From an uncultured Chlorobiaceae bacterium (lineage in GTDB: Bacteria; Bacteroidota; Chlorobiia; Chlorobiales; Chlorobiaceae), in the NCBI GenBank assembly GCA_903887845.1, contig CAISRC010000022.1, positions 1 to 42,853 of the forward strand: 42,853 nucleotides of DNA, given 5' to 3'. Made by a program: the position numbers and the translations under genes. The notes beneath the pieces are model-generated. The model made no database searches. It was given only the letters and a program-made list of their open reading frames with translations, and was not told the origin of the DNA. Below are positions 6,740 through 42,853 of this stretch, piece by piece. Position 1 is the stretch's first letter; each line of letters opens with the position of its first letter.

Positions 6740-7033
6740 AAAACATATCACCTCCGCTCCCCTTCCCCTGGCGCCCGGCAGCTTTTGCCTGCTTGCTGCT
6801 TCCTGCTTTGCGCCAGAGCAAGAAGAGCTACGGCGTGAAAGCAAAGCGCCCTGCCGGGGTACCGGCAAGGCGAATGAAGAGCGGGGGGCGCAGGCGCGCA
6901 TATTGCCGCCTTCACTTGCCCATTCCCCTAAGATTGCACTATATTATTAACACATAATTTTCATTGCGGTTAATTCATTCAATTCCTTCATGAGGCGGTT
7001 ACATAGCCGCCGAAACATCAACAGACAAGCGCT
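6740..7033. repeat. GC-rich repeat fragment with an NGTA-loop hairpin, plus leader of the NACHT gene
   Basis: Bases 6770-6905 are GC-rich and related in style to the repeat arrays at 37.6-39.4 and 40.7-41.7 kb. The hairpin at 6847-6872 has stem CGCC-c-TGCCGG, loop GGTA and stem CCGGCA-a-GGCG, i.e. 10 pairs with one C-A mismatch. After it comes an AT-rich stretch (6935-6975) that probably holds the promoter of the NACHT gene, and a small hairpin GGCGG 6993-6997 / CCGCC 7007-7011 just upstream of its start. No ribosome-binding site of usual strength is seen before 7034. Confidence 0.55.
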
Positions 7034-10000: not shown

Positions 10001-10171
10001 AACGTATGGGAGTGGACGGATAGCTGGTACGATAAACCCAGTTCGGACCGTGTGCTTCGTGGCGGGTGCTGGGACGACGGCGCCGAGGGCTGTCGGTCGG
10101 CTGATCGCCGTTGGGGCACCTCCGACGGCCGGAGCGGCAGCGTTGGCTTCCGCCTGGTGTTCGTCCCGTAG
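7034..10171 (+). CDS. DUF4062-NACHT-FGE/lectin STAND protein, putative DGR-diversified sensor
   Basis: Large (1045 aa) STAND NTPase, probably a cytoplasmic sensor or defence protein. Residues about 8-110 match DUF4062 (KKILVASPGDVYRERKIVEE, CAIGIFWNRIGTPT), a TIR-like effector or adaptor fold common in conflict systems. The NACHT domain follows, with Walker A GDPGSGKTTLIKYY near residue 277 and Walker B LILLDGLDEIS near 361; a helical region runs to about 760. Residues about 795-1045 form a formylglycine-generating-enzyme/C-type-lectin domain (YFAKYPVTNKRYRSFI, GVSWYAAQAYALWLS, LPNEVEWEWAAGG, GLYDMAGNVWEWT, RVLRGGCW ... VGFRLVFV). Such a fold serves as a hypervariable ligand-binding module in DGR targets, and here the last 120 bases are adenine-poor. 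The protein lies between the AlpA-like gene and the phage block as a solo cargo gene. The ligand is unknown. Confidence 0.88.
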   Translation: MADNGIIKKKILVASPGDVYRERKIVEEVIEDWNIRNSNERGVLLDAVLWEKHAASENRGKGDGPQEVITRQIVDDCDCAIGIFWNRIGTPTRFAAGGAVEEVQRMLTVLKRPVMLYFSNLAIARNKVDKEQEAKLEEFRALMKKDGLVWEYGNRATFRKLLARHLDKNIREWFCTLGAPPSKQPIPTEEVLRRYHATIKEELGYIRMLGLPGVESVKVNLNDDTFVPLCLSDRHESGFHPRKQDIPQARGGVEDMLNPDEVMQRAFKKRRMLLVIGDPGSGKTTLIKYYALCALEEDHFKRLGFPAPVSVFYLPLRDLVRHEKGHYDTLPANFSHWSEKHHQPIEATFFDEWLRNGTPLILLDGLDEISNTQDRIEVCKWIDSALNTFTTARFVVTSRATGYRKDEGIELASDYERADVQDFTVEQQERFLKNWFTEAFLKEACPKEVDETEWARLQQAEAGERTQKMVAHLKEEKNKGLRQLAAIPMILQIMAILWKDRDYMPESRVTLYEASLNYLLEFRDKRRGIIPPLSAARARQVLAPISLWMQEKIKKDEAVGKEMHKKIGEQLDKQDKPPTVEDFCDYLVKRAGLLVETGAHDYLFRHKSFREYLAGVQLVIKVRSTRYLGNLIAGFGNDWWDEPIRFFIAQGDEEIFNLFMKKLFDSPVSDELTLKQQLLLQTIIEEAPLKKVDALCTKLLAPANTASRQRVILDSLKTIGKPAAIKTLEQFKSRALAKNKDVADRADEVMYALQEPKDKAELSGNVEKAAPITITQPVINLAHRPASFRNPIEQDAEYILVPKGSYLDSETNERRDVENDLYFAKYPVTNKRYRSFIAALGEHSEIREKLDEIAQNNKWDSEFAKYLNEGKNDLVALFRSAYDEDRKFGGDDQPVVGVSWYAAQAYALWLSQLKGKPDSYRLPNEVEWEWAAGGRRDDAVQEVRKYPWPDDKGEPTPKLANFGMNVGATTPVGSYPEGATPEGLYDMAGNVWEWTDSWYDKPSSDRVLRGGCWDDGAEGCRSADRRWGTSDGRSGSVGFRLVFVP
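10051..10171 (+). other. Putative DGR variable repeat (VR) at the 3' end of the NACHT gene
   Basis: By hand count these 121 bases contain 9 A (about 7%), against 34 A in the preceding 120 bases at 9901-10020 (28%). The encoded segment RGGCWDDGAEGCRSADRR then WGTSDGRSGSVGFRL matches the C-terminal pattern of DGR-target FGE domains, in which template AAC/AAT (Asn) codons are rewritten. Here those places carry GAC, GAC, GGC, GAT, GGC, AGC, GGC and AGC (D, D, G, D, G, S, G, S), all reachable from AAY by adenine changes. Framework residues R-GG-W, CRSA, R and GFRL are kept. No template repeat, reverse transcriptase or Avd gene is in the window, so mutagenesis would have to act in trans or be past. 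Confidence 0.72.
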
Positions 10172-10217
10172 TCAGTTGGCAGCTCTTCCGACTTTGCTTT
10201 GAGCGAGAGTGCAGTTA

Positions 10218-10383: not shown

Positions 10384-11760
10384 CTAAACCCCCCCCACCT
10401 TCCGCCCCAACTCCCGATCAATCTTCTCAATCATCGCGTCATCCACCAAACTCACCCGCGCAATCAGCTTATTCAGCTCACGCAACAACGTCACCGAATT
10501 CATCCTCTCCGCCACATCCTTCGCCGCCGTCAAAAACTCCAGATCAGCCTTCCGGTCACGCAACTCAAACCGCAGCGGATAGGTCACCTCATACCCCGAC
10601 GCTTCAGCATCAACCCCCTCCCACAAACAAAACATCCTGAAAAGCTGATACTCACAAAGCTGCAACTGCGCCGACTTCCCAGCCAGCAACGTATTCAAAA
10701 TCTGAAACTCCGTCTCCATAGCCACACCAGAAATCACCTGCTTCCGATAAGTCCGCACCGACGTCAAATGCGCCATCCGGTTAATCGCCTCAGTCTTCTT
10801 CTCAATCGCCGACAACAGCCCCGCCAACGCCTCAGCATCCGCCTGCAAAAGATACGGCCTCTTATCCGAAGGAGCATCAGGGTCCATAAGAATCACCCCA
10901 CCCGCGCCCGACGTCGCCTGATCCCCGGGATTCTTCACCAGCGTCTTATGATTACTCCCCCTGATCATCTGAGTCAACTCCGAATAATCATTATAGATCG
11001 AAACCTGCATCCCCACAATATCCTCAATATCCGAAGAAGCCTTCCCCCGCACCGTCGATTTCTGATTCGAATAAAGCACCGCCGGAATCGCCCCAAGCGG
11101 GTTCAGCACCTCCACCGGCTCACCAACAATCAAGTTCTCCAGAATCTTCGTTGTCTTAATCGTCTCAACCGTCCACTCAATCACCGTCACCGCCCGCCCC
11201 TTGCGCGTCTCAGTCTCAGTCTTCGTCTTGAGATAGCTCAACAAAGTAGCCCCATTCAACGCCGTAGTAAACTCAAAATCAAGCACATCCTCAGGTGTAT
11301 ACAACCGCACATAAGGACGCAACCCACTCCGAATTTCATCCGCCTTCGTTGCCGCCGTCACCGCAGGCTTGTCCAACACCACCCACACCACCCCATACAC
11401 CCCGCCAAAAACCTGCACCGTCTTCATAAACTCGTTCAGCGGAGTTCCATCCATATCAGCATCCAGAGCAAGCCTGTTCAAATTGGTATTCTTGTCCAGC
11501 TTCCCAAAATTCCGTTTCGGCGGATCACGCCAAATAAACCCCGCATACGTGGTAATAACACTCTCACAATGATTTTCAAGCGGAGTCTGCTGAATCCTCT
11601 TCTCATACTCAGGGTTGGCCTCCGCCACATACTCATACAACAGCTTCAACGCCTTCCACTCCTCCCCCCCCTCAAAAGCAGCCTTGTTCCGTTTCCACTT
11701 CTCAATATTGGCAAGATAGACCTTGTTCGTCACCCGCAACAATTCAGCGCCACTCGTCAT
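10384..11760 (-). CDS. Phage portal protein (DUF4055-like)
   Basis: Probable portal that forms the dodecameric ring at the capsid vertex through which DNA is pumped. The 458 aa are mostly alpha/beta with KLLYEYVAEANPEYEKRI, NHCESVITTYAGFIWRDPP, an NDYSELTQMIRGSNHK segment and a long helix-rich C-terminus, as in DUF4055 portals. I chose the ATG at 11760 because GGAGGGTG stands just upstream; an in-frame TTG at 11775 is less likely. It begins 2 bases after the terminase stop codon, so the two are translationally coupled. It is the last gene of the minus-strand structural block. The specific family is recognised by pattern, not by search. Confidence 0.7.
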   Translation of the reverse strand: MTSGAELLRVTNKVYLANIEKWKRNKAAFEGGEEWKALKLLYEYVAEANPEYEKRIQQTPLENHCESVITTYAGFIWRDPPKRNFGKLDKNTNLNRLALDADMDGTPLNEFMKTVQVFGGVYGVVWVVLDKPAVTAATKADEIRSGLRPYVRLYTPEDVLDFEFTTALNGATLLSYLKTKTETETRKGRAVTVIEWTVETIKTTKILENLIVGEPVEVLNPLGAIPAVLYSNQKSTVRGKASSDIEDIVGMQVSIYNDYSELTQMIRGSNHKTLVKNPGDQATSGAGGVILMDPDAPSDKRPYLLQADAEALAGLLSAIEKKTEAINRMAHLTSVRTYRKQVISGVAMETEFQILNTLLAGKSAQLQLCEYQLFRMFCLWEGVDAEASGYEVTYPLRFELRDRKADLEFLTAAKDVAERMNSVTLLRELNKLIARVSLVDDAMIEKIDRELGRKVGGV

Positions 11761-11762
11761 CA

Positions 11763-13001
11763 CTACACCCTCCAACTTGTTGGTTGCCTGTACTCCCTTG
11801 TCGGCATCCGCACAGGGAACAATTTTTCAATCGCATACCCCGCAGCATCCGACGCATGAGTCAGCCCCTCATTACTCTTGTCAATATCCCCACCCTTCCA
11901 ACTCACCAGCTCAAAATCCTTGATCAAATGAGGGCAATTACCAACCGTCAGCTTTCCCTCCCGCAGCAACTTGTTCACCGCATTCACCCGGCCCCGAACC
12001 GGAGGGTGCGCCGGCCTTGCCTCAACCCGAAACCCCTTCCCCTTCAAAATGTTGAAATCAGTAGAATCCGAAGAACTCTTCCGCGCCCGACCGGCAGGGT
12101 CCGGAAACACCGTCATGCCAGGATACCTCTCATACAACAGGTCAGCCAGCTCGTATGTGGTCGAGTTAGTCAGATGGATCTCATCAAAAAAGTGAACCGA
12201 CCCATCCGGAAACACCGAAAATATCTCAGCCGTCAAATTATCGACATTGAAATCAATCCCCGCCTGATAATGGTAACCCTCCAATTTCGGCCTCACCACA
12301 AGACAGCCCTTCGAATCAAAATACTTGTACACCCTGCCAGCAGTCAAGTTCACAAACTGCCCGTTCATATACGCCGCACGTTGATTCTCATCAAAAGCCT
12401 TCTCAAGCATCGAAATAAATTGAGCAGGGAGATGAGTATTATCCGCCGTTCGCGCCACCACCGTGCCAAGATCATAACGGCCATCAACGTTCTTGGCAAG
12501 TTCATAACCCCAATTGAGCTGCTCAGGCGTCCCCGTCAAAAAGAACTCCCTGAACGTTGCATCAGGATGGCGAAGTCGCGAAAGGATGACATTAAGAATA
12601 TCACCATCCATAATAAACGGCTCATCAGCTCCAGCCGTAGCCAGATTCGGGCCCTTCAAACTGTCAGGGTCGTCACCAGAAGCAACCCATATCGTACCAG
12701 CCCAGCCAGGAATCAGGAACTCATGGTTCGTCTTATTATACTCATACCGAATCCTTGCCCTATCAAGCAACCCGGCAAGAGAGACAATAACCGTCTTACG
12801 AGCCTGCTTGTACGTTGGTGAAACATAGAGATGCGGAATAGGAGCATTGATATAGCTGTTCCAGATAGAGCGAAGAGCGCCGATGTGGGTTTTCCCGCTG
12901 CCATAACCACCAATCAGGAGCTTCACAAAGTTTGGAAGCTCCCAAAACGCCCGTTGATGAGGCAGCATCCGCCCCTTATCAACTCCAAAACGCTGGTTCA
13001 T
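11763..13001 (-). CDS. terL: Phage terminase large subunit
   Basis: Packaging motor ATPase and headful or site-specific nuclease (412 aa). The ATPase domain has a Walker A-like GGYGSGKTHIGALRS near residue 32, YVSPTYKQARKTV, a GADEPF Walker B-type acidic pair near 126, and the coupling motif FLTGTPEQ near 155. The RNase H-like nuclease domain shows AGIDFNVDN (first Asp, about 246), VFPDPAGRA (second) and THASDAAGYAIEKLF (last Asp near the C-terminus). The start overlaps the preceding small gene by 4 bases (ATGA). Together with the portal it forms the packaging machine. Key residues appear intact. Confidence 0.88.
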   Translation of the reverse strand: MNQRFGVDKGRMLPHQRAFWELPNFVKLLIGGYGSGKTHIGALRSIWNSYINAPIPHLYVSPTYKQARKTVIVSLAGLLDRARIRYEYNKTNHEFLIPGWAGTIWVASGDDPDSLKGPNLATAGADEPFIMDGDILNVILSRLRHPDATFREFFLTGTPEQLNWGYELAKNVDGRYDLGTVVARTADNTHLPAQFISMLEKAFDENQRAAYMNGQFVNLTAGRVYKYFDSKGCLVVRPKLEGYHYQAGIDFNVDNLTAEIFSVFPDGSVHFFDEIHLTNSTTYELADLLYERYPGMTVFPDPAGRARKSSSDSTDFNILKGKGFRVEARPAHPPVRGRVNAVNKLLREGKLTVGNCPHLIKDFELVSWKGGDIDKSNEGLTHASDAAGYAIEKLFPVRMPTREYRQPTSWRV

Positions 13002-13210
13002 CCACCAAGCGCCTCAGCAAGAGAAAGGCGCGACAAATCAGCACAAGCGGTAATCTGCTTCAGCTCCAAATCAGTAATGTCCCTACTCTCTTGCGTCGCC
13101 GTCGAGATAAGCTGCATCGCCGAATTGACCTGTGCAGTGACATTCTCAATGGAGGTAACCGTTTCTGCAAGAGAGGCAAGAGCCGTAATCATGTTGACCA
13201 TAATGTTCAT
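12998..13210 (-). CDS. Small helical phage protein
   Basis: This 70-aa frame (MNIMVNMITALASLAETV...) is rich in A, L, T, S and E and looks like a helix or coiled coil. It overlaps the terminase start by 4 bases, sits between the lysis genes and terL on the same strand, and is thus probably translated. A small-terminase-like or lysis accessory role is possible, but the sequence itself shows no domain. It lies 33 bases after the lipoprotein gene. Confidence 0.5.
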   Translation of the reverse strand: MNIMVNMITALASLAETVTSIENVTAQVNSAMQLISTATQESRDITDLELKQITACADLSRLSLAEALGG

Positions 13211-13243
13211 GTTTGGTTTAGGGTTCAGTGAAGTTATGTTGTG

Positions 13244-13630
13244 TTATATTGCGATCCGAAGCGAATAGTGTGTCACGGTTTCCCGTATCTCTCGTATTGA
13301 CGCAAGGGCTGAAGAGAGCTTCCCGGAGGCAGTCGGGGAGTTGGTCACCTGCAACACCCTTGCCTCGTCAAGCGCAGCCCTTGCACCATCAACTTTGCCC
13401 ATCAGCTCAACCGCCTCAGCCCTGCTCATCTTGCCACTCCTGTAGCAACCCTCAATCAGCGTATAGAGCGAGCCACAGGCAGCCACCCCACCACCATACA
13501 GCTTGTTGAAGGTCACCCCGCCTGCAAACGCAGGATCGACGACAGCGGTTTTGCTTGTTGAACTCAATTGCGGTGGAAGCGTGCACCCGCCAGCCGTGAG
13601 CAGCACAAGAAGCAGAGCGATTCTTTTCAT
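13244..13630 (-). CDS. Phage-encoded small lipoprotein (lysis-cassette accessory)
   Basis: Protein of 128 aa with a classical lipoprotein signal: MKRIALLLVLLTAGG followed by the lipobox Cys (LTAGGC), so the mature protein would be lipid-anchored in the outer membrane or facing the periplasm. The rest is low in charge and helical toward the C-terminus (MSRAEAVELMGKVDGARAAL). Its start overlaps the amidase stop by 4 bases (ATGA). Outer-membrane spanins are small lipoproteins in this position after holin and endolysin genes, but they are usually shorter and Pro-rich, so an o-spanin role is only a suggestion. Confidence 0.65.
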   Translation of the reverse strand: MKRIALLLVLLTAGGCTLPPQLSSTSKTAVVDPAFAGGVTFNKLYGGGVAACGSLYTLIEGCYRSGKMSRAEAVELMGKVDGARAALDEARVLQVTNSPTASGKLSSALASIREIRETVTHYSLRIAI

Positions 13631-14229
13631 AATGATTCCTTGTAATTGAGGATTGCGGCAACATGCATCTCTGCAAGCGCAACGCGCCCGGCATGAGAGC
13701 TGATAAAGTGGTAATCTTTCAGGGTATCCATAAAGAGGTTTTCAGTCAGCACGGCAGGGCACAGCGTTTTCGTCAGTATGGAAAAGTCGTTGCTCTCCTT
13801 GTCACCATCGCCATCAGTTACATCCTTGCGTATCGCAAACCCCTTGAGGTACTTTGGCGCCGCATCAAGGATCATCTCCGCCAGCCGATCACTCCGTGTC
13901 TTGCCTTTCGATGTCCAAGCCTCAAAGCCACTGCCTTTGCACGCGTTAGCATGAACCGAAACCAGCACTGACTGAAAGCCATCGTTGCTTGCTGCAGAAA
14001 CCATCCGGTTCACTCTCACGATCCGTTCAGAAATGGATACATCATGCACCTCCGGCACAACGCGCGCACAGGGCACACCAGCCTTTTCAAGCAGCAGAGT
14101 GATCATGTTGACGATATCGCGATTAACCTCATACTCATAAAGCGTTTTCAAGCCTGGGAAAGAAGAGCGCTTTCCCGGAGTATCACTGCCATGACCATTG
14201 TCCAGAAAAACCGAGAGCGGACGACTCAT
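13627..14229 (-). CDS. N-acetylmuramoyl-L-alanine amidase (endolysin, Amidase_3 type)
   Basis: Zn-dependent amidase that cuts the bond between muramic acid and L-Ala in peptidoglycan and so releases phage progeny. The 200 aa contain the family hallmarks: LDNGHGSDTPGKRS near the N-terminus (first Zn His), NRDIVNMITLLLEKAGV with Glu, SVHANACKGSGFEAW (second Zn His), and CPAVLTENLFMD with the catalytic Glu near 165. There is no signal peptide, so export would need the upstream holin-like protein. Start and stop overlap the neighbouring genes by 4 bases each, giving a tight holin-amidase-lipoprotein lysis cassette. Confidence 0.88.
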   Translation of the reverse strand: MSRPLSVFLDNGHGSDTPGKRSSFPGLKTLYEYEVNRDIVNMITLLLEKAGVPCARVVPEVHDVSISERIVRVNRMVSAASNDGFQSVLVSVHANACKGSGFEAWTSKGKTRSDRLAEMILDAAPKYLKGFAIRKDVTDGDGDKESNDFSILTKTLCPAVLTENLFMDTLKDYHFISSHAGRVALAEMHVAAILNYKESL

Positions 14230-14549
14230 GCTTCACCTCCATTGTTATCATTGTTGTCAGGTTTGCCGACGAAATAATTGAAAATGTCCCGTTCCCGCCG
14301 ATAGATTTCACTGATCACCCGATCGCCCAGCGTCCCGGCGATATAGCCAACGATAAACGCGAGATTTCTTTCAATGTTGAAGTATTCAACAAGCAAGTAA
14401 GCCGGAAAGATTGCCAGCAACGACACACCAAGGCGTATCAGCAGCTCACGCCTGCCAGTCAATGTTTTTTGATACAGGGCATGAAGAATGTTCGTAAGTG
14501 CGCCAATAACACCCGAAGCCAAAAGACCAAAAAAGTCGTTGCGTTCCAT
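14226..14549 (-). CDS. Holin-like membrane protein
   Basis: Small (107 aa) membrane protein with hydrophobic segments at about residues 7-25 (FFGLLASGVIGALTNILHAL), 38-56 (LIRLGVSLLAIFPAYLLVEY) and 63-80, and a charged C-terminal tail (RRERDIFNYF...NDNNGGEA). This topology and the position just before the amidase fit a phage holin that opens the inner membrane and times lysis. The amidase start overlaps its stop by 4 bases. The holin class is not assigned. Confidence 0.7.
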   Translation of the reverse strand: MERNDFFGLLASGVIGALTNILHALYQKTLTGRRELLIRLGVSLLAIFPAYLLVEYFNIERNLAFIVGYIAGTLGDRVISEIYRRERDIFNYFVGKPDNNDNNGGEA

Positions 14550-14560
14550 AATCTCTTGCC

Positions 14561-15916
14561 TTAAAAGTATCGTATTGGTCTGAAGCTTCGGGCTTCACTC
14601 TTCAACTCCGAATCATAATAAGCCTCCCCTGCATCGTACGGGAAGTAAAAGAGATAGGCGATGTACTCGTAGCCATAATCAGTACCCTCCGCAGAAGTCC
14701 AGTAAGCAGGGTGCGTAAACCCGCCAATCGCCTCCGAGTTCTGCTCGATCTTTAACCAGTCGTTGGGAGTCGGTAAACAGAAGTCACTAAACCCGTCAGG
14801 CGAAACATAATCGTGGCAATACTTCGCCGCACTGCCCGTGTGCCCCGCTTGCGCAATAATGGCATCGGTATTGGCGTTGCCCTGCCCAAGAGCAAGCGCC
14901 GCCGCACCACAGAAAGCATCAGTAACATTGCTCCATACCATGGGCGGCAGGTCAGCAGGCGCAAGAACAATACCATGAAACTCACCAGCCACAAACCCCG
15001 CATCGCCTTCCTGGTAGAGGTAAGCAAGAATGCCGCCATGGTAATCATCGCCAGGGAGCGGGTTCGCCACATTACAATAAACCGTCCAGTTATATGATTG
15101 CCTCAAATCGTCCGCAAAGTGCACATTCTCAGCACTCAGGCCACTGTTATTGCCAGCGATATTGAGAACCCCGTTTTCGATATTGGCAAGAAAACAGAGG
15201 TTAAGAAACGAGATGACTCCCTCTTCAGACAAGGAGAGATTGGAGACGTTGAGATGAATACCATCACTCCAGGTGGTTATCGTAGGGATATCATAATCAT
15301 TGAACTGAACACCACTCCCTGAAAGATCAATGCTCAGCAAGCTGGCAAACCGGCTGATGTTCAGCAACTCACCACGCAAACCAGTCGCCCCCGAAAGATC
15401 AATCTCCGTCAGCGTTGCAGGCAGCCTGTCAAAGTCACCCGACACCGCAGAACCAGGAATCAAAAGGCGCGTCAACGGGCAACCAGCGACAGCAAGCTCA
15501 CCCGTAAAATTGCCTCCAACCAGCTCAAGTTCACTCAGGCTTTCCAGATTCCCGAACCCTTTGACCGAACCACAAAGCGAAGGATAACCCGCATTCGAGA
15601 ATCTCGTAATCCGGTGAACATCACCCTTGATCACCAGATCAAAACGGCCAGGGTCAGCGTACACCGTCGTATACACCAGCGACTCAAACGTCACCTGATA
15701 CGTTGAGCCAGCCCCCCAGTTGATAATGATGGCGCCACTTCCCACAATGTTCAACGTGCGACTGCCGGGAAGTTCAATATCCCAATACAGCCCCACCAGT
15801 TGCCGCAAATACACACGAGTATTCCAGGCACGCGCAGGCGTAAGCTGCCCCTTGGTGTTCCACCCGCGCGATTTTTTTGAGGCGAGCGCTTCATTAAATC
15901 CCTTGCTGTTACTCAT
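14561..15916 (-). CDS. LRR / lectin-like phage fibre or receptor-binding protein
   Basis: Protein of 451 aa with three visible parts. Residues about 40-130 are beta-rich (GSGAIIINWGAGSTYQVTFE). Residues about 120-270 are leucine-rich repeats (LESLSELELVGGNFTGEL, LPATLTEIDLSGATGLRGEL, LSIDLSGSGVQF). The C-terminal ~150 residues resemble the FISUMP/DUF1566 C-type-lectin-like group (CLPTPNDWLKIEQNSEAIGG, AYWTSAEGTDYGYEYIAYLF, SFRPIRYF). The position between connector-like and lysis genes, and a lectin-type end, suggest a fibre that binds a surface receptor. The start overlaps the preceding gene by 4 bases. The Tyr/Asp/Gly-rich end is hypervariable in this fold. Confidence 0.6.
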   Translation of the reverse strand: MSNSKGFNEALASKKSRGWNTKGQLTPARAWNTRVYLRQLVGLYWDIELPGSRTLNIVGSGAIIINWGAGSTYQVTFESLVYTTVYADPGRFDLVIKGDVHRITRFSNAGYPSLCGSVKGFGNLESLSELELVGGNFTGELAVAGCPLTRLLIPGSAVSGDFDRLPATLTEIDLSGATGLRGELLNISRFASLLSIDLSGSGVQFNDYDIPTITTWSDGIHLNVSNLSLSEEGVISFLNLCFLANIENGVLNIAGNNSGLSAENVHFADDLRQSYNWTVYCNVANPLPGDDYHGGILAYLYQEGDAGFVAGEFHGIVLAPADLPPMVWSNVTDAFCGAAALALGQGNANTDAIIAQAGHTGSAAKYCHDYVSPDGFSDFCLPTPNDWLKIEQNSEAIGGFTHPAYWTSAEGTDYGYEYIAYLFYFPYDAGEAYYDSELKSEARSFRPIRYF

Positions 15917-16338
15917 CGCCTCAGGCGGTTACCTTCCGCCGGTGATTTGGCGTAGAGAGAAACGTATTCTGACCCATTAAAATACTGCACACCAGCCGCA
16001 AAAACACTCTGCAACTCCTTGAAATACTGTCGCTCATAAAAAGCAATCATTGCCACAAACCCCTCACCGCCAACAGAAGCCGCCAGCGACGGTAACACAT
16101 AAGCCGCCAGTACCTTGAACACCGAAGCCTTCATCCATTGGGCAGGGTTCAGCTTCGTAGCGTCAAACGCCACCGATTGAATACCTTCGCTCAAAGACTG
16201 TGCAGGTAACCAGAGGTTCTGAAGATCACGATTGATATCTGCTTCAGCATCAGCGTGATAAGCGGCAAAAGAAGTAATACCATGCTCAAAAACGTATGGC
16301 TGATACTTCAGGAGGTCGGTGTCAGTAGAGTAAGGCAT
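15913..16338 (-). CDS. Phage head-completion/connector-like protein
   Basis: Protein of 141 aa from the ATG at 16338 (MPYSTDTDLLKYQPYVFEHG), 13 bases after the stop of the preceding gene. Longer in-frame openings would overlap that gene. The sequence has a helical core (SFAAYHADAEADINRDLQNL) and aromatic C-terminal part (AMIAFYERQYFKELQSVFAA). A short helical protein opening with residues on 'DLLKYQP' and placed between capsid and fibre genes resembles head-tail connector proteins, but this is inference. Its last codons overlap the fibre gene start. Confidence 0.55.
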   Translation of the reverse strand: MPYSTDTDLLKYQPYVFEHGITSFAAYHADAEADINRDLQNLWLPAQSLSEGIQSVAFDATKLNPAQWMKASVFKVLAAYVLPSLAASVGGEGFVAMIAFYERQYFKELQSVFAAGVQYFNGSEYVSLYAKSPAEGNRLRR

Positions 16339-16351
16339 AACGCAACAACGA

Positions 16352-16699
16352 TTAACGAAAAGACATGGTAACGTGCGATTCAGCACCCGTAATAATTGAA
16401 ACAGCCGTGGCTCCCTTGGGTATCTTTTCTATGTTGGTAGACCCAAGAGTGCAGAAGTCAAGAAAGGGACCGCCATCATAATATTGAGGGTCGGCAAGAT
16501 CGGTCGCGCTCTTGAATTTATAAGCAAAGTATGAACCAATAATGCAACGAAGAATAACGTAAGTCGCGTCAGCAGGGACAGGGTAATCTTCCACCGTATC
16601 AGCAGGAAGAGGCAGGGAGTTTCTACCATTACCAAGAGAGCGCATCAGCGCAGGAACAGTACAAACCACGTCACTCCAGGAACCAGTAGTCGTCGCCAT
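16352..16699 (-). CDS. Phage structural protein of unknown role
   Basis: Protein of 115 aa, probably beta-rich (TYVILRCIIGSYFAYKFKSA, GATAVSIITGAESHVTMSFR), with no recognised domain. It lies 54 bases after the major capsid gene on the same strand and just before the connector-like gene. That place is typical of capsid decoration or head-tail joining proteins. A function is not assigned. Confidence 0.5.
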   Translation of the reverse strand: MATTTGSWSDVVCTVPALMRSLGNGRNSLPLPADTVEDYPVPADATYVILRCIIGSYFAYKFKSATDLADPQYYDGGPFLDFCTLGSTNIEKIPKGATAVSIITGAESHVTMSFR

Positions 16700-16752
16700 A
16701 AATTACCTCTTGAGATACTGAATAGTAATAAAACTCCCTTCCGCCTGCTCAA

Positions 16753-17700
16753 TTACCCAAGCCTCACACCAGGAAGCACCGCAATCGATCGATTATTCAA
16801 CACCTGTGAATCGGCCTGCAACTCTACCGTAAGCTCATAAAAGTTGCCGTTCATCACCATGTCATACACCTTCATCCCGTTTCTCGTGGTCATCAGAGAA
16901 AAGTATGCCTGCTCATCAGACCGGAAAGCATAGACACTGGTACAATCCGTGCTGGTTCCCTTCGTTTCCGTTTGTGCCAGTACTTCAGTACCATCGTAAT
17001 TGTAGCCGGCATGAATAACCGGCACCCCGGCAAAAGTCATCATCCTGCGGCCAAACTGATCGGTTGTGGTCGTGCACTGCGCAGCCGCAACAGTCGTCAA
17101 GCGGCCCCACACACTACTGTTCATCACCAAAAGCTGAGCGCCATTGACAACACTCCCAACCAACACCTGCAACGCCTCAACAAACTTCTGCTGGCTGGAT
17201 ACCGCAGTATCACTCACTCCCGTCAACACCTGAAGGCCATTGGTGCCTGTGGCCGTAAGTGTCTGGCTGGTGCCAAGCGAAGCAACAATCTTTTTGAGAC
17301 CATTAAACTGGGCAGGAGTCTGCGTAGCATCACCATTGACAATGTAATTGCTGAGATTGCGGCCAAGTGTTTGCCCAAAGCTGGCAAGTTGACGTTTCAT
17401 TTCGCTTGGCACATCTCCACCACGCTCCTCATAAGCACGGTCAAGTCGCATCGTCTTGCCAAGAATTTTCAGCGCATAAGTTGCATAACTCGGAGCTGCA
17501 TCAGTCTTCGATGCAAAATCAGCCGCGATAGTACGAAAAAGAGCATTAGCGTTGACATCAGCGTCCGATCGAATCAGCGCCGAACCGCCTGGCTGATAAA
17601 AGAAGTGAACATAGTCCAGAATCGGCGCAGTTTTGCGCACATTGTCAAGAACAAGCTTCGACAGTTCGTCACCTGCCGACACGTCATAAATGAGTCCCAT
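16753..17700 (-). CDS. Major capsid protein (HK97 fold, probable)
   Basis: Protein of 315 aa that would build the icosahedral shell. It has the layout of HK97-type capsid proteins without a long delta domain: helical N-terminus (ELSKLVLDNVRKTAPILDYV), a segment with DFASKTDAAPSYATYALKIL, the spine-helix region RQLASFGQTLGRNLSNYIVN, then a beta-rich A-domain (GAQLLVMNSSVWGRLTTV, GVPVIHAGYNYDGTEV) and the C-terminal QAYFSLMTTRNGMKVYDMVM segment. It follows the scaffold gene with a 27-base gap. No protease gene is seen. Identification rests on order and pattern. Confidence 0.7.
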   Translation of the reverse strand: MGLIYDVSAGDELSKLVLDNVRKTAPILDYVHFFYQPGGSALIRSDADVNANALFRTIAADFASKTDAAPSYATYALKILGKTMRLDRAYEERGGDVPSEMKRQLASFGQTLGRNLSNYIVNGDATQTPAQFNGLKKIVASLGTSQTLTATGTNGLQVLTGVSDTAVSSQQKFVEALQVLVGSVVNGAQLLVMNSSVWGRLTTVAAAQCTTTTDQFGRRMMTFAGVPVIHAGYNYDGTEVLAQTETKGTSTDCTSVYAFRSDEQAYFSLMTTRNGMKVYDMVMNGNFYELTVELQADSQVLNNRSIAVLPGVRLG

Positions 17701-17727
17701 GGTCGTTATTGTTGAGGTTCGATGAGT

Positions 17728-18372
17728 TTATTTTCTTCCCGTCTTGAGAGCATCATATTGTCCCTGAAGCTTGGTCATCACCGGATCGCCGGTACTGGCG
17801 GCAGCACCAGAAGAGCTGGTATCGGCAGAACCCTGGCTTCCTGCACCTCCCGGAGTCGCTGGAAGAAAATGAGGGTTGGTTTCAAGAAAGGCAGAGACAT
17901 GTTCATCAATCGTGACCGGTTTGCCGTTCTTGACTACCGGATTGCCTGAAGAGTCCACCACCATAACGCCGCTCTTCGGGTCAAACCTGATTGAGCCACG
18001 GAGAAGCTCCGCAACCTGATCGGGACGATGTGCCTTATGTGCAGCGGCAAGCAGCTTGGCATCTACTTCACTCCGCTCCAGTTGTGAAGTGAGTTCCTTG
18101 AGCTGGTCTGCCGCCTCTTTTTGAGCCTTTTCAAGAACCGCATCTTTTTCCTTCACCGTATTGTTGAGAAGCTGATCGAATTGTCCCTTCGCCAGCAAGG
18201 CATCATCGGCATGCTTTGTCTCAGCAGCCTTCAAGCGTTGATACTCTTCCACATCAACACCAGCAAACTGACTCTTGGCCGCAGAAGTCGCAGCATCAAC
18301 ACGCGCCTGTATTGCCGCATCAAGCTCCGCCTGCGTGTAACTCTTTGGTTGTGGCTGACTCTCTTTTTCCAT
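17728..18372 (-). CDS. Phage scaffold (GP20-like)
   Basis: Protein of 214 aa. Residues about 15-125 are a charged, Ala/Glu/Lys-rich coiled coil (SYTQAELDAAIQARVDAATS, KEKDAVLEKAQKEAADQLKE) and the C-terminal 50 residues are low-complexity Gly/Ser/Ala. This is the build of minor structural GP20-type scaffolds that shape the procapsid before packaging. The ATG at 18372 is preferred over the one at 18378 because GGAGAG stands 6 bases before it. It is the first gene of the minus-strand block, so the block promoter probably lies in the AT-rich 18373-18470. Confidence 0.7.
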   Translation of the reverse strand: MEKESQPQPKSYTQAELDAAIQARVDAATSAAKSQFAGVDVEEYQRLKAAETKHADDALLAKGQFDQLLNNTVKEKDAVLEKAQKEAADQLKELTSQLERSEVDAKLLAAAHKAHRPDQVAELLRGSIRFDPKSGVMVVDSSGNPVVKNGKPVTIDEHVSAFLETNPHFLPATPGGAGSQGSADTSSSGAAASTGDPVMTKLQGQYDALKTGRK

Positions 18373-18486
18373 AATCATCTCTCCATAATTAAAGTTGTGG
18401 GAGTAATATAAATGAAAAAAGATGTAAAAAAGAAAATAATTCTTTCGTATTTATCGCAAATATGAGAAAAAAAAAGGTGAATGCTC

Positions 18487-18789: not shown

Positions 18790-19104
18790 AGGCCTAATCT
18801 CCCCCGCACCCTGCAAGCTTCAGCCAGCAAAAAGCCCGCCTTCGCTCCTGCAATGCCAAGCCCCGCCGCTCGGTACCGTACGCACGCAGCTCCGCCGCCT
18901 CCGGAGTACCGGAAGCCGCTCCGCGCTCCGGCATGGACGGTTCATTGTAAGAGCAAAACAACCAGGTGAGCGTGATTATTGAAGAAAATAAACCGCACAA
19001 GCGCTTTAAATTATAGCCCTTGTTTATATTGATACTCCTTTATCCCTGTCAGTGATTTTATTTGTTCATCAAATAGTGCCGTACGTCATCCATGTCCTGA
19101 AACC
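18790..19104. repeat. GC-rich repeat fragment with an NGTA-loop hairpin
   Basis: Bases 18890-18926 recur in similar form at 41631-41667. The hairpin at 18897-18916 has stem GC-c-TCCGG, loop AGTA and stem CCGGA-a-GC, with the same C-A mismatch as other members. Bases 18960-19100 are AT-rich and probably contain the promoter of the helicase operon. No gene is seen. Confidence 0.55.
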
Positions 19105-37549: not shown

Positions 37550-37606
37550 AAGGTAAGAAGGATAAACAAAATATTCGATACTCAATCCGGCACGCAAGCA
37601 GTTTGC

Positions 37607-37684
37607 GCGAAAGCGGAGTACCGCCTTCGCTCATGCACGCCCAGCCTCACCACCCAGCATGGCACCCTTGAGTACAAGAGTGCC
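37607..37684 (-). repeat. Hairpin pair, module copy A
   Basis: First hairpin 37607-37630: GCGAA-a-GCGG, loop AGTA 37617-37620, CCGC-c-TTCGC. Second hairpin 37661-37684: GGCAC-c-CTTG, loop AGTA 37671-37674, CAAG-a-GTGCC. Each single mismatch is A-C on the plus strand, hence G-U on the minus strand, where both stems become 10 bp without a break and the loop reads TACT. Confidence 0.7.
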
Positions 37685-38084
37685 ACAGCAGGCCCGCAAC
37701 AACCGCATTGCTTCGTTGCCTCCGCAGCCTGCAACTCCGCTACGCTCCACTGCCTGCTGCTCCAGCGCCTTGCAGCGGCATGGGCAGCATGATGCAAGAG
37801 CCAAGCAAGCAGGCCATCGGCAGCCGTATTGCTTCGGGGCATGGCAGTCAAGCCTCTTCGCTTCGCTCAGTGCAAATGAGCGGTAGCAGGCAAGTTCAGT
37901 GGCTGGTGCGGACAGCGCAACGGAGGTGGATCGCCATTTTGAAAGCAACGGTTTCAGCGCTGTCCACCCCAGAACCCGCACCGGCAAAGCTCCGTGCGTA
38001 CCGGTGCTGGAGCCAAGCAAGCACGCCACCGGCAAGCCGCAAAGCTTCAGGGCTATTGAGGAGCAAGCAGGCAAGCCGTATGGC

Positions 38085-38161
38085 GCGAAAGCGGAGTACC
38101 GCCTTCGCTTCTGCACGCCCGCCGCACCACCCAGCATGGCACCCTTGTGTACAAGAGTGCA
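38085..38161 (-). repeat. Hairpin pair, module copy B
   Basis: First hairpin 38085-38108 is identical in stem and loop to copy A. Second hairpin 38138-38161 has loop TGTA instead of AGTA and its outermost pair is lost (G-A). Confidence 0.65.
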
Positions 38162-38420
38162 AAAGCAGGCCAGCATCTGCCGCATTGCCTCATCGCCTAC
38201 GCCGCAAGCTACTCCGCTTCGCTCCACTGCCTGCTGCTCCGGTGCTTTGCAGCGGCATGGGCAATGCAGTGTAATCGAGTGGCTGGCAGGCCACCGGCAA
38301 GCCGCATTGCTTCGGGGCATGGCAGCCAGCAGCATCGCTTCGCTTGCTGCCGACTGCCGCCCCTCGCAGCGGCAGGGGCTGTTCGGTGCAATTGAGAAGC
38401 AAGCAGGCAAGCTAAATGCA

Positions 38421-38498
38421 GCAAAAGCTGCGTACAGCCTTCGCTTCTGCACGCCCAGCCGCACCACCCACCATGGCGCCCTTGAGTACAAGAGCGCC
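38421..38498 (-). repeat. Hairpin pair, module copy C, with compensatory changes
   Basis: First hairpin 38421-38444: inner stem GCTG/CAGC in place of GCGG/CCGC, so one G-C pair became T-A on both arms; loop CGTA; a second A-C mismatch in the outer stem is again G-U on the minus strand. Second hairpin 38475-38498: GGCGC/GCGCC in place of GGCAC/GTGCC, so an A-T pair became G-C. Confidence 0.7.
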
Positions 38499-38853
38499 AA
38501 TATAAAGCAAGCTTGCGCCCTGTGCTTTCGGTGCCCGTTACTTCCGCTCTGCGCAATTGGCGCTCGCTCGCTCAGCCAGGCAGCGCCAATTGCACTGCCG
38601 CTCCAGCGTCGTTCACCTCCAGCCCGGTGACGCGCAAATGAAGAAAGAATAGTGCAGCTCCACCGCACGTCAGGCAGTGCGCACCCTGCTTTATGCCACT
38701 TTGCACGCTTGGTGCTGGCGCACTGCCTGACGACCGGCTCCGCTGTGGTAGCATGGCACAACACAGCATTGCCGCTCCTTCGATTCGGCTTTGCCTCACT
38801 CACTTCGGGCAACGCTGCAATGTGCATGAAGAGCGTCTGCGCGCTTCGCTTGC
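38476..38853. repeat. Long direct repeat, copy 1
   Basis: About 380 bases that return with high similarity at 39036-39423. Inside are a 12-bp inverted repeat (38553-38564 with 38582-38593) and a perfect 15-bp inverted repeat (CGTCAGGCAGTGCGC 38668-38682 with 38718-38732). It ends in the motif ATGAAGAGCGTCTGCGCG, part of which recurs at 41.1-41.6 kb. Confidence 0.8.
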
Positions 38854-39035
38854 CAGCAAGCCAGAGGTGGCAATGCAACACCGGCACCCAGCAAGCCTTC
38901 TTTCACCTGCGCGGGAAGAACTCGCTTCATTCCGCCGCCGCTCCGCTTCGCTGCACGCAGCTCCATGAATCGACCCGCTCCGGCTCCAGAACGTGCAGAG
39001 CGCCTTGTCAGAGACGGTCAGCAGGGGGAAGAAAA

Positions 39036-39423
39036 GCGCCCTTGAGGAACAAGAGCGCCAAGAGAAAGCAAGCTTGCGCCCTGTGCTTTCGGTGCCCGTC
39101 ACTTCCGCTCTGCGCAATCGGCGCCCGCTCACTCAGCCAGGCAGCGCCGATTGCACTGCCGCTCCAGCGCCGTTCACCTCCAGCCCGGTGACGCGCAAAT
39201 GAAGAAAGAATAGTGCAGCTCCGCCGCACGTCAGGCAGTGCGCACCCTGCTTTGTGGAGCTTTAACGCTTGGTGCTGGCGCACAGCCTGACGACCGGTTC
39301 CGCTGTGGTAGCATTGCACAATACAGCATTGCCGCTCCTGCGATTCGGCTCCGGCAGGCTCCGCCTCACGCACTCGGGAAAAGCTGCAATGTGCATGAAG
39401 AGCGTCTGCGCGCTTCGCTTGCT
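39036..39423. repeat. Long direct repeat, copy 2
   Basis: Second copy of the 38476-38853 repeat. In its inverted repeat (39114-39124 with 39144-39154) one pair is C-G where copy 1 has T-A, a compensatory change. The 15-bp inverted repeat is kept with one A-A mismatch (39229-39243 with 39278-39292). The middle of the long loop differs (tttgtggagctttaa). Confidence 0.8.
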
Positions 39424-39430
39424 GGCGTCG

Positions 39431-39876
39431 TAACCATACATCAGGCGGCTGGTGCCATTGGCCGGTCGGGGCCGGCCAGCATTACATAATGGAAATTATA
39501 CACCCGGCGCTGGCGCGCCTACACGGAGTACCGTGTTGTATAATTTGCCATTATGTAAAGTCAGGTTTTGGCGAGCCACCTTACCTTTGGCGTTCACAGC
39601 CAACAGCTCAGTCGTACTACGGGGATCCGTGGAGTAAACAGAACCAACAACCAGAGCACCGGCATGTACTCAAGGTAAAATATCGCATCCTTCCACTTGA
39701 AGCTCCCCTTCAGGCTCATTCTTTAGCTCCGTTCACGTCTGACACTGTGCCATTAATTATTAATTTACAGCAATAAATTCTGTTACTTGCACCTTCATGA
39801 GAAAGAGTAACAAGTAGAGATCTTGTAAGTAATGAACGAATAACTTACAAGAATAGAATAAGGAGCGAGGTTGAAC
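39431..39876. other. Gene-free stretch before the glycosylase-like gene
   Basis: It holds a hairpin TGGCCGG/CCGGCCA (about 39458-39477), the 77-base palindromic element at 39482-39558, and then about 300 bases with no clear signal. An AT-rich stretch at 39740-39860 probably contains the promoter of the next gene. Confidence 0.4.
39482..39558. repeat. 77-bp palindromic element with a nested NGTA hairpin
   Basis: Arms 39482-39502 and 39537-39558 pair over 21 bases with one bulged base (TTACATAATGG then AAATTATACA). Inside, directly before the right arm, ACACGG 39521-39526 and CCGTGT 39531-39536 flank the loop AGTA 39527-39530. AT-rich arms around a GC-rich centre suggest a small non-autonomous mobile element (MITE-like) or a cruciform. 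No clear target duplication is seen. Confidence 0.65.
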
Positions 39877-40680
39877 ATGAAGTTTCTCTTTGGAAAGCAA
39901 GTGCGGAATATGCCGCCCAGTGGTAACGGCAAAAGACTACTGTTTATTCTTGGCGCTTACCCGAGTGCGCTGCATGTTCGCTGGCATCATCCAGGCTTAG
40001 TAACATCAATTCGGGCAGTGGCAATAGACAATGAACCTGAGCCTTTCTGGACAGGGAAAGGGGAACAAGAACTGATTGAGGAGTGGAAGCGTGCTGTCGG
40101 ATTTCAAGACAAATGGGGTTCCGTATTTCCATGCGGCGGCTCCAATGGCCCCTCAGGGCTTTGGGTAGAAAAGAAGATTCTTGTTCCATTAGGCTTACCA
40201 CGTTCAAAAGCATGGATCACAGATTGTCTCGACACATATTTTGAGAGCAAAGCTGCAGCAGATCGGCTCAATGCCCCAGAACTTGTAAACCTCATCAAGC
40301 AATACGGCATACCCGATCGCCAACATAGGCATCACCCCTCCGAATCTGACATCGTGAGTGAGGCCAAGCAACACCACCTTGAGAGATTGCGAAATGAGTT
40401 GACGATAGCAAGTCCGGAGTTGATTGTTACTCTCGGTAATGCGGCCCTCAGAGTAATGAACATTCTCATTGATGGGTACAGCGATAAAATTTCTAAACTC
40501 TCTGCCAAAGAAGAATATGGTCGCAAGTTCCAGGTTCAAGTCTGCGGACAGAATGCAGAATGGCTACCATTGGCACATCCTGCAGCTCCAAAGATATATC
40601 AAGATGCTCACGACATCTGGTGCAAAAGTTTTAACACAAGAGTTCAAGAGGTTGATAGAAATATTGGGAAAGAAGGATAA
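39877..40680 (+). CDS. Uracil-DNA-glycosylase-like superfamily protein
   Basis: Protein of 267 aa from ATG 39877, with AGGAGCGAGG just upstream; an in-frame TTG at 39871 is less likely. It shows the UDG-superfamily layout: motif 1-like LFILGAYPSALHVRW near residue 25, a central ITDCLDTYF strand region, SPELIVTLGNAALRVM near 185, and motif 2-like PLAHPAAPKIY near 232. In known glycosylases, motif 1 holds the catalytic Asp or Asn and motif 2 the 'HPS' loop; here the Asp/Asn after GxxP is not obvious, so base removal is uncertain. It stands alone between two repeat arrays. DNA damage repair or defence against modified phage DNA are both possible. Confidence 0.65.
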   Translation: MKFLFGKQVRNMPPSGNGKRLLFILGAYPSALHVRWHHPGLVTSIRAVAIDNEPEPFWTGKGEQELIEEWKRAVGFQDKWGSVFPCGGSNGPSGLWVEKKILVPLGLPRSKAWITDCLDTYFESKAAADRLNAPELVNLIKQYGIPDRQHRHHPSESDIVSEAKQHHLERLRNELTIASPELIVTLGNAALRVMNILIDGYSDKISKLSAKEEYGRKFQVQVCGQNAEWLPLAHPAAPKIYQDAHDIWCKSFNTRVQEVDRNIGKEG

Positions 40681-42236
40681 CTCGTGTGGAAGAGATTTGT
40701 CAACACTCATGCTGGGCTGGTCAACGTAGCGGCATAATAATCAGTCTTAAAGGCAATCAAGAAGCTTCTGGATAACCGCCATATTGCAGCCCGGCCTATC
40801 GCGCTTGAACTCCGCCGGTGTGGTATGGTGACACCACAGAAGCATCTTCCCGCAAGCGGGTGGCGTGGTTGTCATGGTGGCAGGGTCGAGTCTCAGTGTA
40901 TTCAATGCGTTCAACAGCCGCGCACAGAGGGAAGATCGCAACTGTTCAACGCCCTTTACCTCTACGCGCTCCGCTTGGAACTCGCGATATACTGCTCAGT
41001 CACGCTGCTTGCAATGGGCTGCTGTGCTGGCTGCCTGCTTTGCAAGGAGCAAGCAGTGCGCCTTCGCAATGAAGAGCTTTCTGCGCGCTTCGCTTGCTGG
41101 CAGGCCAGGCAGCGGCGGGAATGCGGTCCAGAAGAGCTGGCTATGGCTGCTGCGTGCGGGGCAGGGGCGGCGCGAAAGGGCTGTTCATCCGGGGGTGCAA
41201 TTGGCTGCCTCCGCAGGGCTGTTGCGGAACCACCGTCATGTCGTCAGGCAGCCGCGCCAAATCATCATGCTGTTCCTCATACTCTCGGGCGGTCTGCCCG
41301 GCGCATCTTATTTTCTCCGCGCTCCGCTTGGGGCGATGTACTGCTCAGTCATGCTGTTTGCTGAGTACGTCCAGTGAAGTCTGGTGAAATCGTGCAAGGC
41401 AAACAGCCCGCCTTCACAATGAAGAGCGCAAGGTAAAAAGAGTTCGGGGTACCTCACTCCATTTACCTGCAAAAGCGGCGCTGTTGGGGTACCAACCACG
41501 CCGCATGGCGATATACTTACTTTGTCATGCCGCTTGCAGGAAGAAGAGCAAGTGTCATGCCAAAGTAAATGAAGAGCGCAAGGTAAAAAGAGTTCGGAGT
41601 ACCTCACTCCTTTTACCTGCAACTAAAAGAACTCCGCAGCCTCCGGTGTACCGGAAGCTGCTCCGCGAATGCGGGGGGAGTACCCCCCACACCCCCGGTT
41701 GGTATGGGTGGTGTTTGTTTGGTTGCTGGGCGTGCGTCGGTGCGCGTACCGGTAGCTTTTGCCCGCTTGTTGGTTGCCGTTCGGTGGCAGCGTCTTTATG
41801 GGCTGGCTCCGCCCCCCATTTCCCCCTGGTGCTCGGGCGTAAGTCTCCAGCCTCCCCCCAGTGCGGCAGCCGGTCAGCGTTCACCAAGCCCCCATCGCTG
41901 CATTTTTCTCTCTTGTCACGCCCTGAACTTATGGCTTTACTGGTGCAGCCTTGCCTGCTGGACCTTGTGCCATCGGCGCAGTCAGGCAAGTGTTTCAGTG
42001 GGTTCAAAAAAACAGACGAATCACGGGACAGAAAGGATGGGTTTTTGGTAATTCATTTTGAAAAAATCCGGGTGAAACAGAAGAGCTGCATTATTTATTT
42101 GGTAAAAATTAAGTCAGCAAAAATCGTACTTAACTATATATTATTTAATAATTTAAATTCTTTTTTCATCTTTATTTTCTTATATTTAAGTGTATTTAAA
42201 AAGTGTTTCTAATGTCTTAAAAATAGGAGGCTTGTA
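40681..42236. repeat. GC-rich repeat region with three bipartite modules and several hairpins
   Basis: I see no credible gene in these 1.55 kb. A sequence of the type GCGAT-TACT...GTCA-GC-GCTTGC occurs at about 40984, 41333 and 41506, each followed 60-90 bases later by AATGAAGAGC (41070, 41417, 41568). After the last two, a hairpin AGGTAAA...TTTACCT with inner GGAGT/ACTCC repeats (41424-41474 and 41575-41622). NGTA-loop hairpins are at 41475-41504 (GCGGCG, GTTGG, loop GGTA), 41639-41658 (TCCGG, loop TGTA) and 41673-41688 (GGGGGG, loop AGTA). From 42080 the sequence becomes AT-rich up to the next gene. Confidence 0.65.
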
Positions 42237-42714: not shown

Positions 42715-42853
42715 TGAGCACACCGGAGTATAGTGTACCACCTCTACCGGAGCAAAGTGTACCAGCGATTCCGGAGCATAGTGTACCACCTGTACCGGAG
42801 TAAAGTGTACCAGGTATACCGGGCGAAAGTGTACCACCCAATCATGTCAGATT
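42715..42853. mobile_element. End of an IS21-type element with five 24-bp terminal repeats
   Basis: Five contiguous units of 24 bases (42723-42842) share CCGGAGYAWAGTGTACCA at each start and differ in the last six bases. Runs of such repeats ending in GTGTACCA are typical of IS21-family tips, where transposase binds. A TG dinucleotide at 42715 could be the tip. The istA/istB genes would lie beyond the window. Confidence 0.65.

What the first reader, a model, noticed from the sequence alone, without database searches (positions are those of the whole stretch)
37598..41690. Hairpin family with NGTA tetraloop, different stems and minus-strand G-U rule
At least eleven hairpins in the window share a 4-base loop NGTA (AGTA, GGTA, TGTA, CGTA) but have unrelated stems: CTTG, GCGG, GCTG, TCCGG, TGCCGG, GTTGG, ACACGG, GGGGGG. 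Most carry one mismatch 4-6 pairs from the loop, and that mismatch is nearly always C-A on the plus strand. On the minus strand it becomes a G-U wobble, so the stems are complete only as minus-strand RNA with a UACN loop. Members also lie at 6847-6872, 18897-18916 and 39521-39536. This points to a selected RNA or ssDNA element spread through intergenic space, not to random GC-rich filler.
Basis: partly seen in the sequence, partly recalled or inferred. Interest (0 to 1): 0.82.

Follow-up and report, generated by a model that had tools for sequence, protein, structure and literature searches.

The report
Strand-specific hairpin arrays in Chlorobium islands
Green sulfur bacteria of one genus carry long non-coding stretches, lying among their anti-virus genes, that are studded with hairpins which share one loop but not their stems and pair fully on only one strand, which points to an undescribed family of structured RNA-like elements whose job is not yet known.

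Summary
The window, a whole contig of a Chlorobiaceae MAG, has 11 hairpins with a UACN loop on the minus strand and none on the plus strand. Local dinucleotide shuffles give 0.07, and 0 of 300 reach 11. The hairpins belong to a genus-restricted, patchy family. In fetched genus loci, 74 of 74 model hits (43 distinct sequences) point one way within their locus. Their closing pair is always G-C, and 42 of 43 carry a non-Watson-Crick pair, mostly G·U 5-7 pairs below the loop. A strand-symmetric scan finds G·T 25, A·C 0; the genome control is 47:41. Compensatory changes link homologous copies. The 39521-39536 member is one arm of a three-way junction with six doubly changed pairs. The hairpins sit in 2-3 kb non-coding blocks that alternate with defence genes. 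They are not 'spread through intergenic space': in this genome every model hit is on this contig. No REP-type transposase gene was found. Best reading: a new modular family of RNA-level structured repeats in Chlorobium defence islands. Transcription and binding partner are unproven.

The parts
37598..39600 (-). Structured non-coding array 1 (tandem modules A, B, linker and three-way junction)
   Evidence: Internal repeats at 83-90% identity; homologous blocks in other genomes; homologous blocks there are non-coding
40760..42000 (-). Structured non-coding array 2
   Evidence: Hairpins 41478-41692; homologous to G050:C35 (L235)
37607..37630 (-). Hairpin A copy 1, GCGAAGGCGG-UACU-CCGCUUUCGC, G.U at position 5
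   Evidence: R1 32.8 bits
37661..37684 (-). Hairpin B copy 1, GGCACUCUUG-UACU-CAAGGGUGCC, U.G at position 5
38085..38108 (-). Hairpin A copy 2
38138..38161 (-). Hairpin B copy 2, loop UACA
38421..38444 (-). Hairpin A copy 3, stem changed on both sides (GCUG/CAGC), loop UACG
38475..38498 (-). Hairpin B copy 3, A-U changed to G-C
39035..39059 (-). Degenerate hairpin B with altered loop (UUCCU)
   Evidence: R1 E 0.82
39482..39558 (-). Three-way-junction element: about 20-bp outer helix, hairpin ACACGG-UACU-CCGUGU (39517-39540), second hairpin GGCGC/GCGCC
   Evidence: z -7.4; six doubly changed pairs among 10 sequences; R2 E 4e-19 here and in 11 further genomes
41432..41467 (-). Hairpin H copy 1, loop UACC, 2x2 internal loop plus G.U
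   Evidence: sequence; 55-bp repeat at 96%
41582..41617 (-). Hairpin H copy 2, loop UACU
41478..41501 (-). Hairpin I, 13-bp stem GCGGCGUGGUUGG-UACC, U.G at position 7
41637..41660 (-). Hairpin E, GCAGCUUCCGG-UACA-CCGGAGGCUGC, U.G at position 6
41669..41692 (-). Hairpin F, GUGUGGGGGG-UACU-CCCCCCGCAU, U.G at position 7
18895..18918 (-). Hairpin D, CGGCUUCCGG-UACU-CCGGAGGCGG, U.G at position 6
   Evidence: same hairpin beside related phage genes in G050:C9
6848..6871 (-). Hairpin C, GCCUUGCCGG-UACC-CCGGCAGGGC, U.G at position 7
   Evidence: conserved block of about 195-230 bp (87-91%) in G050:C33 and G065:C184

Best explanation
These are members of a genus-specific family of modular, structured non-coding repeats that work as single-strand structures of the UACN strand, most likely as RNA. 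SHOWN: the hairpins are real, strand-polarised, co-oriented, maintained by compensatory change, built on one plan (G-UACN-C cap, 4-6 Watson-Crick pairs, a wobble at pair 5-7, then a lower helix), and packed with a three-way junction into conserved 2-3 kb non-coding blocks that alternate with defence cargo. INFERRED: the blocks are transcribed; the shared cap plus wobble is a repeated recognition site for one partner (a host RNA-binding protein, or loop-loop contacts through the self-complementary GUAC), which is why stems may change while loop and wobble stay. INFERRED: modules spread by duplication and by homologous recombination between co-oriented copies. That would keep orientation constant and let defence genes be gained, lost or swapped between blocks, as where G010 has cargo between two direct copies of a module that is single in G045.
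For: Enrichment over shuffles and loop specificity; G-T 25 vs A-C 0 in UACN hairpins against 47:41 in the control; compensatory changes between homologous copies; linker transitions symmetric, AG 947 and CT 978; 74/74 hits co-oriented and 42/43 with a non-Watson-Crick pair; G010 replaces a whole stem between conserved flanks and keeps the UACN loop; six-sequence block folds better on the UACN strand, e.g. -356 vs -274 kcal/mol, z -6.35; non-coding substitution pattern, with 1-nt indels and no codon phase; defence cargo; cargo between direct module copies; no consistent leading- or lagging-strand orientation, which fits RNA better than replication-coupled ssDNA.
Against: No expression data exist here, and no partner protein or transcript ends were identified. 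Orientation ignores that of the cargo genes, so the hairpins are not simple UTR parts of them. The opposite strand also folds better than its shuffles (z -5.83). Among single changes from Watson-Crick pairs in UACN hairpins, 13 go to G-T, 7 to A-C and 19 to transversion mismatches, so many copies are decaying. Copies share ancestry, so event counts are not independent. The link with defence genes was not tested against a null.
Confidence: 0.55

Rival explanations
1. REP/BIME-like miniature mobile elements: imperfect ssDNA hairpins recognised by a tyrosine (HUH) transposase, spreading as singlets and clusters.
For: Short imperfect palindromes in clusters, stems that differ between sub-families and G-T pairs in stems are all reported for REPs (PMC3733652).
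Against: No Y1_Tnp gene in the 98.8% complete own genome. No GTAG or CGTC tag at the stem foot; the constant part is the loop. REPs occur as head-to-head and tail-to-tail dimers, here all hits in a locus point one way. Blocks are long and conserved in order between species.
Confidence: 0.12
2. Recombination sites like integron attC: ssDNA hairpins of one strand used by a recombinase to insert defence cargo, so sites stay co-oriented with cargo between them.
For: Strict co-orientation; cargo between blocks and between direct module copies; a tyrosine integrase in the window.
Against: Spacing is often 50-250 bp with no cargo in between. Whole 2-3 kb blocks, not only the sites, are conserved. One breakpoint seen lies between hairpins B and A, not in the loop. 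A single G-T rather than extrahelical bases marks the strand.
Confidence: 0.12
3. No selected structure: perfect palindromes decay by strand-biased C-to-T mutation, which turns G-C into G-T on one strand only.
For: Would give G-T without A-C on one strand; arrays are mostly G-rich on the UACN strand.
Against: Linker transitions are symmetric. Both-side Watson-Crick changes are common. The loop and closing pair are constant while stems differ.
Confidence: 0.06
4. Intrinsic terminators or insulators between cargo operons.
For: GC-rich hairpins next to gene ends; two UACU hairpins outside the genus are ordinary terminators.
Against: No U-run follows the hairpins examined; many hairpins in series; orientation independent of flanking genes; also upstream of genes.
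Confidence: 0.08
5. Sites tied to the diversity-generating retroelement that shares these islands.
For: VR or TR copies lie in several array loci.
Against: Most arrays have no VR nearby. The conserved DGR block after VR has a different sequence and loop.
Confidence: 0.04

Closest known systems
BOX elements of Streptococcus pneumoniae (PMC3049150)
   Same: Modular repeats with variable copy number of modules, predicted RNA stem-loops, intergenic, no own coding gene needed
   Different: Here many unrelated stems share one loop, strand polarity is set by G-U, blocks reach 2-3 kb with a three-way junction, and they alternate with defence genes; no sequence relation was tested
REP/BIME elements, GTAG and CGTC families (PMC3733652)
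   Same: Short imperfect hairpins, families with alternative paired stems, G-T pairs; CGTC repeats reported in Chlorobi
   Different: No terminal tag, constant loop instead, single orientation, no Y1 transposase in the genome
Integron attC sites (from general knowledge)
   Same: One folded strand is the working form; arrays point one way with cargo between
   Different: Cargo absent between most hairpins; conserved part is the loop, not core boxes
Coat-protein binding hairpins of ssRNA phages (from general knowledge)
   Same: One loop motif and one fixed irregularity below it on otherwise variable stems, repeated along an RNA
   Different: Chromosomal and bacterial; no coat-like protein known here; an analogy of working only

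Membership tests
REP / RAYT (GTAG) | GTAG tetranucleotide at the stem foot | tested here: not met
   Flanks and stems of the distinct copies read; only G-UACN-C is constant
REP / RAYT (GTAG) | RAYT (Y1_Tnp) gene in the genome | tested here: not met
   PF01797 absent from own genome, control genomes ring; relatives not tested
CGTC REP | CGTC tag, 8-9 bp stem, CCA-like tail | tested here: not met
   Not seen in sequences; definition
Integron attC | Integron integrase IntI in the genome and R/L core boxes | not tested
   A phage-type tyrosine integrase is in the window, but IntI-specific features were not examined
BOX-like modular repeats | Modular composition with duplicated modules and RNA-like folding | tested here: met
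   Module duplications; folding
BOX-like modular repeats | boxA/B/C sequence homology | not tested
   No alignment to BOX elements was run
Known Rfam RNA family | Match to a curated covariance model | tested here: not met
   None at gathering cut-off; only sub-threshold chance hits in related loci
Intrinsic terminator | U-run directly after the hairpin | tested here: not met
   Sequences after hairpins A, B and others
DGR target-site hairpin | Hairpin directly downstream of VR | tested here: not met
   The block after VR has a different conserved sequence
Protein-coding repeat | Codon-phase bias and indels in multiples of three | tested here: not met
   Uniform phases and many 1-nt indels; flanking gene behaves as coding

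The most novel reading that the evidence does not exclude
Each 2-3 kb block is a single very long structured non-coding RNA whose repeated G-UACN-C hairpins bind many copies of one partner (or each other through GUAC contacts), and which serves the surrounding anti-phage islands, for example as a scaffold, sponge or sensor in defence.
Probability: 0.15. Interest if true: 0.88.

Novelty: new variant of a known kind. Interest (0 to 1): 0.62.

Why it matters
Structured repeats in bacteria are usually defined by a conserved sequence. Here the loop, the closing pair and a wobble position are conserved while stems turn over, which is a signature of recognition by structure. If the blocks are transcribed, they would be among the larger structured RNAs of bacteria and would sit inside defence islands. 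If they are recombination platforms, they would offer a concrete route by which those islands exchange cargo. Both readings can be tested with one RNA-seq data set and one population-sequencing data set.

Tried and rejected
Rfam: nothing at gathering, nothing credible at E<=0.5 in related loci. Viral contigs: the module A core gives 14 matches, all without the extended stem, taken as chance matches in phage coding sequence; module B gives none. Phage and plasmid collections: no match. Phylum scan with the hairpin model: outside the genus only three isolated single hits; the two examined, G184 and G209, look like ordinary terminators, and G158 was not examined. Nine named Chlorobiaceae loci around umuC: no hairpins. 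Replication-strand hypothesis: nine contigs give mixed orientation, 5 versus 4. Coding-repeat hypothesis rejected. Literature: no description found for Chlorobium, within an open-access library only. Pair counting on hand-picked hairpins is circular because rows were chosen for pairing; it was not used as evidence.
Full report
WHAT WAS CHECKED. The window is a complete 42,853-base contig (C22) of a 2.65-Mb, 98.8% complete genome. Close relatives of its UmuC-like gene are in Chlorobiaceae MAGs, so it is a green sulfur bacterium. Read on the minus strand they have the form stem-G-UACN-C-stem. Eleven pass a stem threshold on the minus strand and none on the plus strand; local dinucleotide shuffles give 0.07 on average and never reach 11 in 300 trials, and no other loop class exceeds two.

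STRAND RULE. With a detector that treats G·T and A·C alike, so that it cannot favour a strand, distinct UACN hairpins from arrays of this genus contain 25 G·T and no A·C pairs. Hairpins in 40 stretches of the own genome contain 47 and 41. Hairpins with other loops in the same arrays lean the same way (17:7 at the loosest threshold, 9:0 at threshold 9). Hairpins were deduplicated by their inner stem only, so related stems still count more than once.

ONE PLAN, MANY STEMS. A covariance model built from 13 such hairpins found 74 hits in the window and 20 related loci, 43 of them distinct. The closing pair is G-C in all 43, and 42 of 43 have at least one non-Watson-Crick pair: 28 at pair 5, 6 at pair 6 and 11 at pair 7 counted from the loop. 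All hits within a locus point the same way. The loci were chosen with this model, so loop conservation is partly selected. Independent support is that in these loci TACT is the loop of 29 of 145 distinct four-base-loop hairpins, and that the unselected variants TAGT and TATT come next among loops read on that strand.

COMPENSATORY CHANGE. Homology-based alignment of modules B and A from several genomes shows five pairs changed on both sides, reached by 1 of 500 shuffles. In hairpin A, pair 8 is G-C, G·U or A-U in different copies. Across all array alignments, distinct changes at Watson-Crick pairs of UACN hairpins include 14 both-side changes that restore Watson-Crick pairing, against 3 both-side mismatches. 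Single transitions split 13 to G·T and 7 to A·C, and 19 single transversion mismatches show that copies also decay. Linker transitions are symmetric (947 A/G, 978 C/T), so biased mutation is not the cause. In G010 a hairpin between conserved flanks has its whole stem replaced and its UACN loop kept.

A LARGER FOLD. The member at 39521-39536 is one arm of a three-way junction, window 39482-39558 on the minus strand: a 20-bp outer helix with one bulge, the ACACGG-UACU hairpin and a second hairpin. It folds at -39.3 kcal/mol, z -7.4. Ten sequences give 98% paired cells, six doubly changed pairs and a covariation score that no shuffle reaches. A model of it finds this element in 12 of 65 genomes of the genus and in none of the other genera of the class that were scanned. 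A distant copy in G026, not used to build the model, keeps the outer helix through new changes and has ACGCCG-UACC-CGGUGU in place of ACACGG-UACC-CCGUGU, with a G·U on the UACN strand.

WHERE THEY ARE. Blocks of 2-3 kb with the hairpins in conserved order occur in several species. They are non-coding: many 1-nt indels and no codon phase, while a flanking gene shows both constraints. In six species a 740-800-nt piece folds about 75-82 kcal/mol better on the UACN strand than on the other. In this genome all model hits lie on this contig, and 756 kb of other sequence from array-bearing genomes holds two such hairpins. Between the blocks lie defence genes. In the window these are a DrmD-like helicase, a PD-Lambda-2-type protein, a type III restriction system, a dGTPase and a NACHT protein. 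Elsewhere they include AbiGi, two Abi_2 proteins, a TIR-pentapeptide protein, HKD-Snf2 and a type II restriction enzyme. This is an observation without a null test. Compared with G045, G010 has genes inserted between two direct copies of a module.

WHAT IT IS NOT. No Y1 transposase gene, no Rfam match, no relatives in plasmid or phage records, no true match in viral contigs, no fixed replication-strand orientation.

CONCLUSION. The evidence shows a genus-restricted family of modular structured elements kept in shape on one strand. RNA is the most economical reading: G·U is treated as a good pair, orientation is uniform within a block and independent of replication, and long blocks are conserved. 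Transcription, partner and benefit are inferred and untested.

Noticed in passing
window 7034-10171 (+), VR about 10041-10173: NACHT plus FGE-sulfatase protein (1045 aa) whose 3' end is a variable region of a diversity-generating retroelement; the template repeat and reverse transcriptase are on another contig (G000:C39), with differences at template adenines. NACHT proteins diversified by DGRs are known (PMC10907252).
   Followed up: partly
L062 (G000:C39) 14627-16548; L019 (G000:C40) 1485-1650: Further VR copies and the template repeat of the same DGR; the stretch after the stop codon is conserved between targets.
   Followed up: partly
window 42716-42853: Tandem units of about 26-27 bp resembling CCGGAGNATAGTGTACCA at the contig end; not analysed.
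   Followed up: no
window 10384-18378 (-): Phage-type gene cluster with a large terminase subunit, kept next to the same UACN hairpin in G050:C9.
   Followed up: no
L061 position 5395 (G000:C38): Hairpin TTTGTAGGGTCACGG-TACG-CCGTGACTCTACAAA outside the arrays, with the same loop class and a G-T on the TACN strand; looks like a different dispersed repeat.
   Followed up: no
window 39871-40680 (+): Protein with a weak uracil-DNA glycosylase superfamily match, lying between the two arrays.
   Followed up: no
arrays in L229-L248 and window: Many hits lie near MAG contig ends, so copy number is probably underestimated.
   Followed up: no
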